Below, piece after piece: positions 425-60,568 of a stretch of DNA of 64,000 nt. Every line of letters starts with the position of its first letter. The stretch's first letter is position 1. The position numbers were made by a program, and so were the translations under genes. The notes below the pieces were generated by a model, which had not been told where the DNA came from, made no database searches, and was given only the letters and a program-made list of their open reading frames with translations. Source of the DNA: an uncultured Aquitalea sp. (GTDB lineage: Bacteria > Pseudomonadota > Gammaproteobacteria > Burkholderiales > Chromobacteriaceae); NCBI RefSeq assembly GCF_945957525.1, contig NZ_CAMFLA010000001.1, positions 1 through 64,000 of the forward strand, written 5' to 3'.

Positions 425-1624
425 ATGCAGATCGCCACGCCATCAGACGTACTCTTTCTCCTGCTCGGAGCCATCATGATCCTGGCCATGCATGCCGGCT
501 TCGCCTTTCTGGAGCTGGGCACGGTGCGCAAGAAAAACCAGGTCAACGCGCTAGTGAAAATCCTCACCGACTTCGCCGTCTCCGCCATCGCCTATTTCTT
601 CGTCGGCTATACCGTCGCCTACGGCGTCACCTTCTTTCACGACGCCGGACACCTCGCCAGCCTCAACGGCTACGAGCTGGTGAAGTTTTTCTTCCTGCTT
701 ACCTTTGCCGCCGCCATTCCGGCCATCGTTTCCGGCGGCATCGCCGAACGCGCCCGTTTCCACCCGCAATCAGCCGCCACCTTCCTGCTGGTAGGGCTGG
801 TCTACCCCTTCTTTGAGGGCGTGGCCTGGAACAACCACTTCGGCATCCAGGACGCGCTGACCCATGCCTTCGGCCAACCATTCCATGACTTTGCCGGCTC
901 AGTGGTAGTCCATGCCGTCGGCGGCTGGATCGGCCTGGCAGCCGTGCTCCACCTCGGCCCCCGCCGTGGACGCTATACACGGGAAGGTCGCGTCTCGGCG
1001 CATCCGCCGTCATCCATCCCCTTCCTCGCGCTGGGCGCCTGGATCCTGATCGTCGGCTGGTTCGGCTTCAACGTAATGAGCGCCCAGCGCTTGGGCGCCA
1101 TTTCCGGCCTGGTAGCGATGAACTCGCTGATGGCCATGGTGGGCGGCACCCTCAGCGCCATGGTGGCCGGCAAGAACGACCCCGGCTTCATCCATAACGG
1201 CCCGCTGGCCGGCCTGGTGGCGGTGTGCGCCGGCTCCGACATCATGCACCCGCTGGGCGCGCTGATGGTGGGCTTGATCGCCGGCGCGCTGTTTGTCTGG
1301 ATGTTCACCCAGACGCAAAACCGCTGGAAAATCGACGATGTGCTGGGCGTGTGGCCCCTGCACGGCCTATGCGGTGCCTGGGGCGGTATCGCCGCCGGCC
1401 TGTTCGGCCAACAATGGCTGGGCGGCGTCGGCACCATCAGCCTTGCTTCGCAACTGATCGGCACGCTGGGCGGCGTACTGGTAGGGTTTGTCGGCGGCTA
1501 TGTCGTCTATGGTGTCTTGCGCAAGCTGGTAGGCATTCGCCTGAGCGATGAAGAGGAATTCAACGGCGCGGACCTATCCATCCATCAGATCACCGCGACG
1601 CCGGACCGCGAAACCAACTGGTAG
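425..1624 (+). CDS. amtB: Amt-family ammonium transporter
   Basis: This encodes a 399-residue polytopic inner-membrane channel for ammonium/ammonia. Family landmarks are present: the DFAGS motif with Asp155, the pore twin histidines His163 and His313, and the GLCGAWGGIAAGLFG segment after the second histidine. The cytoplasmic tail resembles the Amt tail that contacts PII proteins. The ATG at 425 is preferred over the ATG at 359 because AGGGACGG lies just upstream and the protein then starts directly before the first membrane helix. The usual Amt signal peptide is absent, so this is a short form of the family (E. coli AmtB has 428 residues). No glnK lies next to it, which is unusual, because glnK-amtB pairing is common. 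It lies between tRNA-Met and the fimbrial cluster. Confidence 0.93.
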   Translation: MQIATPSDVLFLLLGAIMILAMHAGFAFLELGTVRKKNQVNALVKILTDFAVSAIAYFFVGYTVAYGVTFFHDAGHLASLNGYELVKFFFLLTFAAAIPAIVSGGIAERARFHPQSAATFLLVGLVYPFFEGVAWNNHFGIQDALTHAFGQPFHDFAGSVVVHAVGGWIGLAAVLHLGPRRGRYTREGRVSAHPPSSIPFLALGAWILIVGWFGFNVMSAQRLGAISGLVAMNSLMAMVGGTLSAMVAGKNDPGFIHNGPLAGLVAVCAGSDIMHPLGALMVGLIAGALFVWMFTQTQNRWKIDDVLGVWPLHGLCGAWGGIAAGLFGQQWLGGVGTISLASQLIGTLGGVLVGFVGGYVVYGVLRKLVGIRLSDEEEFNGADLSIHQITATPDRETNW

Positions 1625-2234
1625 TCTCCCGCCATCGTTCCCCCACACACCCGGCCTCGCCCCGCCTTGGCCGGCGCTTCGCACGCACCGCCGGCCTCGC
1701 GGACATTACCCTTCGCAGCAGCTTAGCCCGCACCGCGTCTGGTTCCCTATCGCGCAGAGGTGCGTAACACGCCCCTCGCGAGTAAGGCCTGCTGCAGCCA
1801 GCAGCCCACATTCCCCATACCCCGCCCTGGGCAGCCCCCCAGCAAAGCCCCCTCCTCTTCAAAACCAATCCATCGCCAAGCGCTACCACCCACGTCGGTT
1901 TTCTTCGTTTCCTGACCTTTATTACGCGCACCACGCCTCGGCCGCGCACCTTCCAGGCCTTGGCAGCCCCCAGCACATCACAGTCAACTCAAACAGCATT
2001 AATTACAATTAATTAATGACATAAGCATTACCCTCCACGGACGCTGGCAAACACTTCAAACGCATTGGAATAAGTATTTTCCGACAACTGAAATGGCAAT
2101 GATCTTAATGACTTACCCCGCCCTCAGCTTGGATCATTCACAGGCCGAAAAAAACCGTATTCATCCATCCCAGGCAACTGCCCAAAAGTACTTGTATCAG
2201 CAGGGAAGGTGAAAACTTAACCCCAAGGAAAATC
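1625..2234. other. 610-bp intergenic region upstream of the fimbrial genes
   Basis: No convincing gene is visible. The first half (to about 1970) is C-rich and the second half (about 1985-2220) is distinctly AT-rich, with tracts such as TTAATTACAATTAATTAA. The AT-rich half presumably holds the promoter and regulator sites for the fimbrial operon, but I could not assign a clear -35/-10 pair. The open frames in the C-rich half have low-complexity proline/serine/arginine translations and no start signal. Confidence 0.5.
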
Positions 2235-2753
2235 ATGAAAGCTCTGACCGCAATCGCCCTCGCTACTTTCGCCTTCTCCGCTCAAGCCATGGCTGCCGAC
2301 GGCACCATTGACTTCGTCGGCAACGTTGTCGCCAATACCTGCGTGATTAACGCCGGTAGCCAAAACCTGACCGTCAACATGGGCAACGTGCCGGCCAACG
2401 CCCTGGCCACCGCAGGCCAGATGGCTGGTCAGACCCAGTTTGCGATCTCGCTGACGGGTTGTACCGGCTCCGCCACCAAGGTAGCCGCCAAGTTTGAGTC
2501 CGGTCAGGCAGATCTCACCACTGGCCATCTCAACCTGACCGCCGCCGCCGATGTCGCCCAGAACGTTCAGGTTGCCATCTTCGACAGCAGCAACGTTGAA
2601 AACAAGTTCGGCCAGCCGGTTCCGGCCAGCTCCTTCCAGACGCTGAGCAGCGGCAACGCAACGCTGAACTACAGCGCCTGGTACATCGCTACCGGCACCG
2701 CTACCACCGGTAGCGCCAACGCGCAAACCACCTACACCCTGTCTTACCAGTAA
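2235..2753 (+). CDS. type 1-like fimbrial major subunit (pilin)
   Basis: This 172-residue secreted pilin of the FimA/chaperone-usher superfamily would be the shaft subunit. A signal peptide ends at about residue 20 (AMA). The mature part carries the classical Cys pair (NTCVIN and LTGCTG) that closes the pilin disulfide, and the C-terminal TYTLSYQ with penultimate Tyr is the beta-strand recognised by the periplasmic chaperone. AAGGAA upstream sets the start. It is the first gene of a four-gene cluster with chaperone, usher and adhesin, and being first and small it is probably the most abundant product. Confidence 0.93.
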   Translation: MKALTAIALATFAFSAQAMAADGTIDFVGNVVANTCVINAGSQNLTVNMGNVPANALATAGQMAGQTQFAISLTGCTGSATKVAAKFESGQADLTTGHLNLTAAADVAQNVQVAIFDSSNVENKFGQPVPASSFQTLSSGNATLNYSAWYIATGTATTGSANAQTTYTLSYQ

Positions 2754-59200: not shown

Positions 59201-60461
59201 CATCGAACTTGTACTGATAAGTACGGGAGCTGAACTTCATGCGGCCTACGCGCGACAGATCGTAGGTTTCTTCGCTGAAGAACAGACGCTGGAACAGCGC
59301 TTCCACCGCGTCTTCGGTCGGCGGTTCGCCGGGGCGCATCATGCGATAGATGGCAACGCGAGCCTGGGTCTGGTCAGCGGTGTCGTCGGTACGCAGCGTT
59401 TGGGAGATATAAGCGCCCTGATCCAGATCATTGGTGAACAGCACGTCCACTTGATCGATCTCGGCCAGCGCCATCTTGGCCAGCAGCTCTTCGGTGATTT
59501 CTTCGTTGGCGCGAGCCAGCACTTCACCGGTATCGGCATTGACCACATTGTGCGACAGCATCTTGCCAAGCAACGCGTCGGCCGGCACTTCGATGCGATC
59601 CAGCTGTGCGGTCTGAATATCGCGAATATGCTTGGCGGTAATGCGCTTGTCCTTGGCGACAATCAGCTTGCCGTCGGCGGACACGATATCGAACTTGGCG
59701 ACTTCGCCCTTCAGACGCTCAGGCACCACGCGCAGGAACACGCCGGTCTTGGTCAGATAGAAGGTGTCGAAGCTGTAGAATTCAGACAGGATCTGCTCAT
59801 TGCTGTAACCCAGCGCCTTGAGCAGGATAGTCACCGGCATCTTGCGACGACGGTCAATACGGAAGTACAGCAGATCCTTCGGATCGAATTCGAAATCGAG
59901 CCAGGAACCGCGATAAGGAATCACGCGAGCGGAGAACAGCAGCTTGCCCGAGGAGTGGGTCTTGCCGCGGTCATGCTCGAAGAAAACGCCCGGCGAGCGG
60001 TGCAGCTGGGAAACGATGACGCGCTCGGTACCGTTGATGATGAAAGAACCATTGGTGGTCATGAGCGGAATTTCGCCCATGTACACTTCGTTCTCACGCA
60101 CTTCCTTTACCACCGGCTTGGACGACTCTTTATCGAGGATCGTCAGACGGATACGGGCACGCAACGGAGCAGCGTAGGTGATGCCGCGCAATTGGCATTC
60201 CTGCACGTCGAACGGCGGCTCGCCAAGAATGTAGTGTGCAAAGTCAAGTCGCGCATAGCCGTTGTGGCTGACGATGGGGAAAATCGACTTGAATGCGGCT
60301 TGCAGACCAACATCCTTGCGCTGATCTAGCGGTACACCCAGTTGCAGGAATTCGGCATAGGAATCAATCTGGGTCGCCAACAGGAATGGGACATCGAGAA
60401 CACTGGCACGTTTCGCAAAACTCTTACGAATACGCTTTTTCTCAGTAAACGAATAACTCAT
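56286..60461 (-). CDS. rpoB: RNA polymerase beta subunit
   Basis: This 1391-residue subunit is of the usual betaproteobacterial length. The rifampicin pocket ([33 protein letters not shown]) has the wild-type text. The C-terminal [20 protein letters not shown] region contacts beta'. The ATG at 60461 begins [15 protein letters not shown], the conserved N-terminus; a longer in-frame extension is not supported. A 9-mer motif copy lies at 58509-58517. Confidence 0.99.
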
Positions 60462-60568
60462 AGAGTCTCCATCGAGGTGGTAGTGGCGCAAGAAATCAAA
60501 AGTCAGCAGCCACGCCGGGTAATTGCTGGCTTTTACTATCTTTGTTTCGGCCAACTACAAGCGCAATA

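What the first reader, a model, noticed from the sequence alone, without database searches (positions are those of the whole stretch)
869..60554. A dispersed uptake-like DNA word, core TTGGCCGAA, extended AGGTTGGCCGAA
Seen directly: the 9-mer occurs 20 times in 64 kb on both strands. Starts are 869, 1403, 5820, 7833, 8598, 8919, 16483, 21366, 22480, 23775, 26532, 28115, 32028, 32334, 34215, 48762, 48778, 52752, 58509 and 60546. Chance gives roughly one or fewer on both strands. Seven copies extend to the 12-mer AGGTTGGCCGAA (expected far below one). Several continue as GAAGAC. Codon control: five copies encode Arg-Leu-Ala-Glu as AGG-TTG-GCC-GAA although AGG and TTG look rare in these genes, whereas CTGGCCGAA as Leu-Ala-Glu is found about once (23921). 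Some copies lie in other frames (usher Val-Gly-Arg, amtB Phe-Gly-Gln, rpoA Ser-Ala-Asn) and three are intergenic, so codon bias alone does not explain it. Inference: selection acts on the DNA word, as for the DUS of Neisseria or the USS of Haemophilus, but with a different sequence from the Neisseria DUS (GCCGTCTGAA).
Basis: partly seen in the sequence, partly recalled or inferred. Interest (0 to 1): 0.8.

Follow-up and report, generated by a model that had tools for sequence, protein, structure and literature searches.

The report
New DNA-uptake word in Chromobacteriaceae
The window carries a short DNA word repeated about 1,400 times in its genome, and sister genera carry slightly altered versions, which very probably marks DNA as 'self' for import, a trait until now described only in two other bacterial families.

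Summary
The window holds 20 TTGGCCGAA (chance 0.83). The unit is the 10-mer GTTGGCCGAA: 1,368 copies in the 4.05 Mb genome against 21 for the reversed word. In a 429 kb sample genes hold 110 copies where synonymous shuffling gives about 8, so codon use does not explain it. Copies show no strand bias, form 19 close inverted pairs (about 2.4 expected), 15 of them intergenic, and are missing from a low-GC acquired island.
23 of 61 family genomes carry such a word, in three clade-specific dialects: GTTGGCCGAA, GTTGGCCGAG, GTTGGCCGCA. None of 386 sampled genomes of other families has comparable counts.
All 23 carriers encode a homologue of ComP, the Neisseria uptake-sequence receptor, but so do 34 of 38 non-carriers. 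It lacks Neisseria ComP's second disulfide, and the word's core is CCG, not the supposedly invariant CTG.
Best reading: DNA uptake sequences of Chromobacteriaceae, including Pseudogulbenkiania ferrooxidans 2002, apparently the strain once reported to lack an obvious one. Uptake itself is untested.

The parts
869..878 (-). GTTGGCCGAA copy (in gene 476-1624, antisense)
1403..1412 (-). GTTGGCCGAA copy (in gene 476-1624, antisense)
5819..5828 (+). GTTGGCCGAA copy in gene 3593-6133
7832..7841 (+). GTTGGCCGAA copy (RLAE frame)
8598..8607 (-). GTTGGCCGAA copy
8919..8928 (-). GTTGGCCGAA copy
16483..16492 (-). GTTGGCCGAA copy
21365..21374 (+). GTTGGCCGAA copy (RLAE frame)
22479..22488 (+).
23774..23783 (+). 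GTTGGCCGAA copy (RLAE frame)
26532..26540 (-). TTGGCCGAA core only (preceded by A instead of G)
28115..28124 (-). GTTGGCCGAA copy
32027..32036 (+). GTTGGCCGAA copy
32333..32342 (+). GTTGGCCGAA copy (RLAE frame)
34214..34223 (+).
48761..48787 (.). inverted pair of GTTGGCCGAA between the genes at 48800-50896 and 47531-48721 (EF-G and EF-Tu by my reading of their first residues)
52752..52761 (-). GTTGGCCGAA copy in gene 52041-56231 (rpoC by recall)
58509..58518 (-). GTTGGCCGAA copy in rpoB (56286-60380, name by recall); among 49 rpoB sequences the word is at this alignment place only here and in Gulbenkiania mobilis
60546..60555 (-). GTTGGCCGAA copy, intergenic upstream of rpoB
4699..4708 (+). 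GTTTGCCGAA second form
9769..9778 (-). GTTTGCCGAA second form, intergenic
12222..12231 (+). GTTTGCCGAA second form
13951..13960 (-). GTTTGCCGAA second form, intergenic
17909..17918 (-). GTTTGCCGAA second form
18537..18546 (+). GTTTGCCGAA second form
18912..18921 (+). GTTTGCCGAA second form
55123..55132 (-). GTTTGCCGAA second form in gene 52041-56231

Best explanation
The word is a DNA uptake sequence (DUS). A surface minor pilin binds DNA that bears GTTGGCCGAA, and the type IV pilus pulls that DNA in. Recombination of the imported stretches enriches the word over time across the genome, in whatever frame and strand point mutation creates it. Close inverted pairs probably double as transcription terminators. 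Related genera read altered dialects (GTTGGCCGAG, GTTGGCCGCA). The most likely receptor is the ComP-like pilin. SHOWN here: the enrichment, its independence from codon use, strand parity, inverted pairs, the dialects and their clade distribution, and a ComP-like gene with a ComP-like predicted fold. INFERRED: binding, uptake, the uptake-recombination drive, termination and the receptor's identity.
For: Counts of 1,368 against 21 for the reversed control in this genome. Codon shuffle: 110 genic copies observed, 7.9 expected; the same in stretches of four further carrier genomes and not in two non-carriers. Three clade-specific dialects in 23 of 61 family genomes, like DUS dialects in Neisseriaceae (PMC3630211, sections 6 and 11 read). 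Close inverted pairs: 8-120 in each of the 23 carriers, 0 or 1 in each of the 38 others; 15 of 19 intergenic in this genome, 13 of these within 100 bp of a gene's 3' end. Conserved sites: 11 of 16 intact between two Pseudogulbenkiania species, 6.8 expected from flank divergence. No copies in a 20 kb acquired island. The ComP homologue's three best solved-structure matches are the three Neisseria ComP sequences, E about 3e-10; Foldseek ranks Neisseria ComP 5hz7 first for the P. ferrooxidans homologue. In-register resemblance to mucDUS and simDUS at 9 of 12, P 0.004-0.009. A loop signature N[TAV]D.[GD] between the first two strands is in 22 of 23 carriers and 0 of 32 non-carriers compared.
Against: No uptake or transformation data. 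ComP-like genes also occur in 34 of 38 non-carrier genomes, so presence alone does not track the word (Fisher P 0.29). The loop signature was chosen after looking, the sequences are related, one carrier (G018) lacks it, and the looser form N[TAV]D occurs in one non-carrier. Neisseria ComP's two-disulfide DD region is missing. The core is CCG, not CTG. The conservation test is small and counts only sites intact in one species. The nine other genomes of the genus lack the word. ComEC is present but also in 10 of 14 control genomes, so it says little; other competence genes were not sought.
Confidence: 0.86

Rival explanations
1. A sub-case of the best explanation: the word is an uptake sequence, but its reader is another minor pilin, for example the GspH/FimT-type pilin encoded upstream in the same pilin cluster.
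For: A GspH-domain pilin lies between polA and the ComP-like gene in this genome. FimT mediates DNA uptake in other competent bacteria (PMC8897410, seen only as a search listing with the start of its abstract).
Against: The ComP homologue is nearest to the proven DUS receptor, and its putative DNA-contact loop differs between carriers and non-carriers. FimT was not compared across carriers here.
Confidence: 0.25
2. A Chi-like recombination hotspot or a chromosome-segregation word (KOPS type) read by an intracellular enzyme.
For: Similar length and copy number (recalled).
Against: Such words are strand-biased with replication (recalled). On the 353 kb contig, whose GC skew keeps one sign in every 50 kb block up to 350 kb, copies are 58 and 62 by strand, 95% interval 39-58%. 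The excess of close inverted pairs is not expected.
Confidence: 0.04
3. A REP/MITE-like short mobile element or a repeat spread by insertion.
For: Many dispersed copies, some as inverted pairs.
Against: Conservation is confined to about 13 bp. Most copies are inside genes with chosen synonymous codons. In the rpoB alignment word-bearing and word-free homologues align without a gap at the three places printed.
Confidence: 0.01
4. Codon or amino-acid bias (Leu-Ala-Glu runs) or base composition.
For: 70 of 110 genic copies lie in one sense frame, giving xLAE.
Against: Synonymous shuffling within genes gives 7.9 against 110; antisense copies are 33 against 3.4. The reversed control has 21. Stretches of two non-carrier relatives hold 0 and 1 copy.
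Confidence: 0.01
5. Binding site of an abundant regulator, nucleoid protein or methyltransferase; the central GGCC is a palindrome.
For: Not tested directly; a C5 DNA methylase gene lies in the island at the end of the contig.
Against: The word is asymmetric outside GGCC, lies mostly within genes, and its clade dialects differ in the last two bases only.
Confidence: 0.05

Closest known systems
DNA uptake sequences (DUS) of Neisseriaceae, especially AG-mucDUS AGGTCGTCTGAA and AG-simDUS AGGCTGCCTGAA
   Same: 10-12 bp, about a thousand or more copies in most carriers, both strands, inverted pairs, clade dialects, AG prefix, 9 of 12 bases in register, a ComP homologue (sequences from PMC7371117 passages)
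   Different: Core CCG instead of CTG at +6 to +8; +5 is G; one dialect ends in G at +10; the pilin lacks the DD region; a different family of bacteria
Uptake signal sequences (USS) of Pasteurellaceae
   Same: Dispersed word, inverted pairs, general logic
   Different: Unrelated sequence (AAGTGCGGT; PMC12616744 passage)
ComP minor pilin of Neisseria meningitidis and N. subflava (2m3k, 5hz7, 2nba)
   Same: Best sequence matches of the Chromobacteriaceae pilin and best fold match 5hz7, with 2nba third and 2m3k fifth
   Different: One C-terminal Cys pair instead of the two disulfides of the DD region

Membership tests
Neisseriaceae DUS | Over-represented 10-mer, genome-wide, both strands | tested here: met
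   Counts by strand; the word or one overlapping it ranks first in the stretches of all carriers sampled
Neisseriaceae DUS | Clade-specific dialects | tested here: met
   GAA, GAG and GCA endings by clade
Neisseriaceae DUS | Frequent close inverted pairs, terminator-like | tested here: met
   Pairs in 23 of 23 carriers; 15 of 19 intergenic here; termination itself not tested
Neisseriaceae DUS | CTG core at +6 to +8, common to all eight described dialects | tested here: not met
   CCG in all three dialects; definition from PMC3630211
Neisseriaceae DUS | A at +10 in all dialects | tested here: inconclusive
   A in the GAA and GCA dialects, G in the GAG dialect
Neisseriaceae DUS | Word raises DNA uptake and transformation | not testable with these tools
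   Needs experiment
ComP receptor | Sequence and fold homology to Neisseria ComP | tested here: met
   (the fold model is of the P. ferrooxidans protein, not of this genome's)
ComP receptor | DD region held by two disulfides (four Cys) | tested here: not met
   20 of 23 carrier proteins have 2 Cys; the 3 with more carry the extra ones in the N-terminal 50 residues
ComP receptor | Specific binding of the cognate word | not testable with these tools
   Needs binding assay
Pasteurellaceae USS | GCGG inner core of AAGTGCGGT or ACAAGCGGT | tested here: not met
   Word is GTTGGCCGAA; definition
Chi / KOPS | Strand bias along a replichore (recalled) | tested here: not met
   58 against 62 on one 353 kb contig

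The most novel reading that the evidence does not exclude
Chromobacteriaceae are a third family with sequence-specific DNA uptake. An ancestral GTTGGCCGAA word diverged into genus dialects, was lost in Aquitalea and other lineages, and shares an origin with Neisseria DUS although the 'essential' CTG core is CCG here. It is read by a one-disulfide ComP whose beta1-beta2 loop helps set specificity.
Probability: 0.55. Interest if true: 0.85.

Novelty: new variant of a known kind. Interest (0 to 1): 0.76.

Why it matters
[quoted passage not shown] The 2013 survey put the origin of DUS after the split from Chromobacterium violaceum, found no obvious DUS in Lutiella nitroferrum 2002 or Pseudogulbenkiania NH8B, and no ComP in C. 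violaceum by BLAST (PMC3630211). Here P. ferrooxidans 2002, by its strain number the former Lutiella (recalled), carries 1,104 copies, and four named Chromobacterium species have a ComP homologue. The dialects, absences and receptor variants in environmental genera would make the origin of uptake specificity, and how receptor and word change together, directly testable. The word also suggests how to transform these bacteria and flags foreign DNA in their genomes.

Tried and rejected
Rejected: codon bias; chance; strand-biased words; mobile repeats.

False lead: a GTTTGCCGAG word in a Chromobacterium sample came from one of four 20 kb stretches and is not enriched genome-wide (38 GTTTGCCGAR against 28 reversed). 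Samples of 60-120 kb from non-carriers G001, G005, G016, G024, G025, G037 and G046 gave top 10-mer scores of 7.7-14.6, against 43-66 in three carriers sampled alike; the higher ones (G046, G025) look like local repeats, shown only for G046. Other dialects below that level are not excluded.

PF16732 (ComP_DUS) is not diagnostic: it matches 94 of 101 genomes, with up to four matches each, including a PilE-type pilin. The first rpoB tree used wrong frames in some rows and was discarded. The tree holds 49 of 61 genomes; G018 (rpoB broken over frames), G026 (partial), G009 and G053 (no full match) and eight not fetched are left out. ComP-like presence does not separate carriers from non-carriers. 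My note gave the loop signature as N[TAV]D with 0 of 32 non-carriers; one search shows 1 of 32 for that form, and 0 of 32 for N[TAV]D.[GD].

Literature: a search for the word's letters (201 papers, 20 listed, none on uptake by title) and searches for uptake sequences or competence with the genera or family (the last two list 12 of 915 and 12 of 65 papers) showed me no report of it. Table S1D of PMC3630211, which lists over-represented 10-mers of Lutiella and Pseudogulbenkiania, could not be read and may contain the word.
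Full report
OBSERVATION. The window holds 20 TTGGCCGAA on both strands at the stated places; dinucleotide shuffles give 0.83, at most 3. Seven extend to AGGTTGGCCGAA, shuffles 0.03. 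Among the 9-, 10-, 11- and 12-mers of the window that occur five or more times, this word family scores highest. Nineteen of 20 copies begin with G, so the unit is GTTGGCCGAA.

WHOLE GENOME. The window is the start of contig 1 of a 4.05 Mb genome in 35 contigs. TTGGCCGAA occurs 1,497 times against 92 for the reversed word. GTTGGCCGAA occurs 670 + 698 times against 9 + 12. In the 429 kb that I held for this analysis (contig 1, 353 kb, and four further stretches) there are 148 copies, 1.8 expected from a third-order Markov model. Of its 30 one-base neighbours GTTTGCCGAA stands out, 67 against 1.7; the next are 15 against 3.1 and 9 against 1.2. Genome-wide GTTTGCCGAR has 635 copies here against 19 for the reversed word, and 10-103 in the 60 relatives. 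So this genome seems to carry two forms of the word, as Simonsiella muelleri does (PMC3630211, sections 6 and 11 read).

NOT CODON USE. With a home-made gene caller (361 genes, 79% of the sequence), genes hold 77 sense and 33 antisense copies. Two hundred shuffles of synonymous codons within each gene give 4.5 and 3.4. Copies occur in five of six frame-strand classes. Outside called genes there are 37 copies in 90.6 kb, in genes 111 in 339 kb; the first figure includes the roughly 20 kb island below, in which the caller found no genes, so 'outside' is not strictly intergenic. The same test with longest reading frames on stretches of four other carriers gives 49, 36, 12 and 21 copies against 2.4, 2.0, 0.6 and 1.2, and 0 and 1 in two non-carriers.

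SHAPE. Around 132 copies of the 9-mer on contig 1 only about 13 positions are conserved. In the 37 copies outside called genes the consensus is A-G-GTTGGCCGAA-G (70%, 62%, 84%). On contig 1 the 10-mer strands are 58 and 62 (95% interval 39-58%), and GC skew keeps one sign in every 50 kb block up to 350 kb, which speaks against Chi- or KOPS-like words.

INVERTED PAIRS. Facing copies separated by 0-20 bases occur 19 times; random placement predicts about 2.4. Fifteen of the 19 lie between called genes, and by my reading 13 of these have a gene's 3' end within 100 bp; several are flanked by A and T runs as in AAAAGGTTGGCCGAAGC...GCTTCGGCCAACCTTTTT; four lie in genes. One is in the window, 48761-48787. 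This is the arrangement described for Neisseria and Pasteurellaceae terminators (PMC1852404 passages; PMC13020248 passages).

FOREIGN DNA. The last 20.4 kb of contig 1 hold neither form of the word (chance of any such gap about 0.007). G+C there falls from 61-65% to about 51%. Of ten proteins scanned from this end, out of 16 frames listed, one is GyrB, one has no family, and the rest include TIR, Mu-type transposase, TniB, TniQ, a C5 DNA methylase, a helicase domain, a sigma factor and Vsr: an acquired island without the word.

RELATIVES. The family search returned 61 genomes with this one although 200 were allowed, so these are taken as all held. GTTGGCCGAA is high in this genome (1,368), in three Pseudogulbenkiania genomes (1,104, 893 and 183, the last a metagenome assembly 84% complete), in G011 and G020 (2,168 and 579), in G014 (1,245) and in G018 (1,851). 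GTTGGCCGAG has 1,940 and 1,590 copies in the two g4 genomes. GTTGGCCGCA has 1,871-2,895 in all 13 g5 genomes. That makes 23 carriers of 61. The other 38 (nine of the same genus, 19 g7, six g8, four g9) have 10-62 GTTGGCCGAA. Pairs in any dialect: 8-120 in each of 23 carriers; 0 in 34 and 1 in 4 of the 38 others. In an even sample of the order, 386 genomes of other families had at most 223 GTTGGCCGMR, with excesses over the reversed control up to about fivefold where copies were not few (G123: 82 against 16), against 1,304-3,107 in the eight carriers sampled, about 15-fold and more. Only this word was counted there; other words are not excluded.

NAMES. Six of the nine other g1 genomes tie to Aquitalea; in g7 two tie to Chromobacterium, one to 'Xenophilus sp. 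AP218F' and one to strain TC5R-5. In the named records themselves the word is present in 6 of the 7 carrier loci (4-14 copies; 0 in a 7.8 kb piece) and absent in all 12 non-carrier loci. That g5 is Vogesella is my inference from genome size, base composition and number of species, not a result; g4, g8 and g9 are unnamed. That P. ferrooxidans 2002 is the former Lutiella nitroferrum 2002 is recalled.

HISTORY. In an rpoB tree of 49 genomes, rooted at the midpoint, this genome is sister to the eight Aquitalea genomes included (support 1.0); the other carriers lie in the sister clade of that group, together with the non-carriers g8 and g9, and Chromobacterium falls outside. The GAG and GCA carriers are each a clade (1.0); some deep nodes are weak (0.08, 0.45). 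One origin of the GAA word with dialect changes and losses in Aquitalea, g8 and g9 is the simplest reading; no formal test was made. In rpoB one copy (58509 here) is shared by place only with G. mobilis; two GCA copies are shared by all five g5 genomes in the tree, each also in one genome outside g5. At these three places word and non-word versions align without gaps, so the word arises by point change. Between two Pseudogulbenkiania species 11 of 16 aligned copies are intact (6.8 expected), with 3.1% change in copies and 8.2% in flanks; this test is small and counts only sites intact in one of the two.

RECEPTOR. G000 encodes, downstream of polA and of other pilin genes, a minor pilin whose three best PDB matches are the ComP sequences (2m3k, 5hz7, 2nba; E 3-4e-10); eight ordinary pilins follow at 5e-5 or weaker. 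A profile of this pilin finds it in 57 of 61 family genomes, not in the four g9 genomes; matches in g5, g7 and g8 are weaker than in the rest. AlphaFold2 on the P. ferrooxidans protein with 16 relatives gives pLDDT 84.9. Foldseek ranks N. meningitidis ComP first (5hz7, E 1.1e-6), a Shewanella pilin second (1.5e-4), N. subflava ComP third (1.6e-4) and 2m3k fifth. The published DD region with two disulfides (PMC4906244, passages) is absent: the 23 carrier proteins have only one C-terminal Cys pair. Between the first two strands of the model, the place of the beta1-beta2 loop that contacts DNA in N. subflava ComP, 22 of 23 carriers have N[TAV]D.[GD] and 0 of 32 non-carriers do (55 of the 57 sequences were compared). 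This signature was chosen after looking, and the sequences are not independent. Non-carriers keep a ComP-like gene in 34 of 38 cases, so the gene alone does not imply the word.

RELATION TO NEISSERIA DUS. AGGTTGGCCGAA matches mucDUS and simDUS at 9 of 12 positions in register. Random 12-mers of this genome reach 9 of 12 against any of six of the eight dialects with frequency 0.0036, 0.0087 if shifts are allowed, and 0.0051 for letter-permuted versions of the word. The difference hits the middle of the CTG core, which Frye et al. found essential and common to all dialects (PMC3630211, abstract and passages). It works like a DUS; by the core and DD-region tests it is not a member of the Neisseriaceae DUS and ComP families as now defined.

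WHAT IS NOT SHOWN. Competence, binding and uptake bias are untested in these bacteria here, and the listings of papers that I searched showed no data on them.

Noticed in passing
contig 1 of the same genome, 330-352.8 kb (beyond the window; L022, L023): Low-GC acquired island beside gyrB with Mu-type transposase, TniB, TniQ, TIR protein, C5 methylase, helicase domain, sigma factor and Vsr; it lacks the uptake word.
   Followed up: partly
G024 and G033 (g8): Mild excess of GTTGGCCGAA (62, 45) and GTTGGCCGAG (92, 85) over controls (11-21), without a dominant word in the 120 kb of G024 read; possibly decayed copies. Unexplained.
   Followed up: partly
window 34214-48761: Longest gap of the window without either form of the word, 14.5 kb, covers the ribosomal protein genes (named by recall); not significant by itself.
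   Followed up: no
G018:C3:1111347-1115432: rpoB of Paludibacterium denitrificans is split over frames, perhaps assembly errors.
   Followed up: no
L129 (G046, Chromobacterium group g7): A 20 kb stretch with about ten copies each of several 10-mers, such as CTACCGCTTC and CTCGGCAAAC: a local repeat, perhaps a repetitive gene.
   Followed up: partly
Aquitalea genomes G001-G009: They lack the word but keep a ComP-like pilin with a changed loop (NAR in place of NTD) and a long stem branch in the pilin tree.
   Followed up: partly
G123 and other genomes of other families: GTTGGCCGMR exceeds its reversed control up to about fivefold at low counts (82 against 16) in some genomes outside the family; probably composition, not examined.
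   Followed up: no
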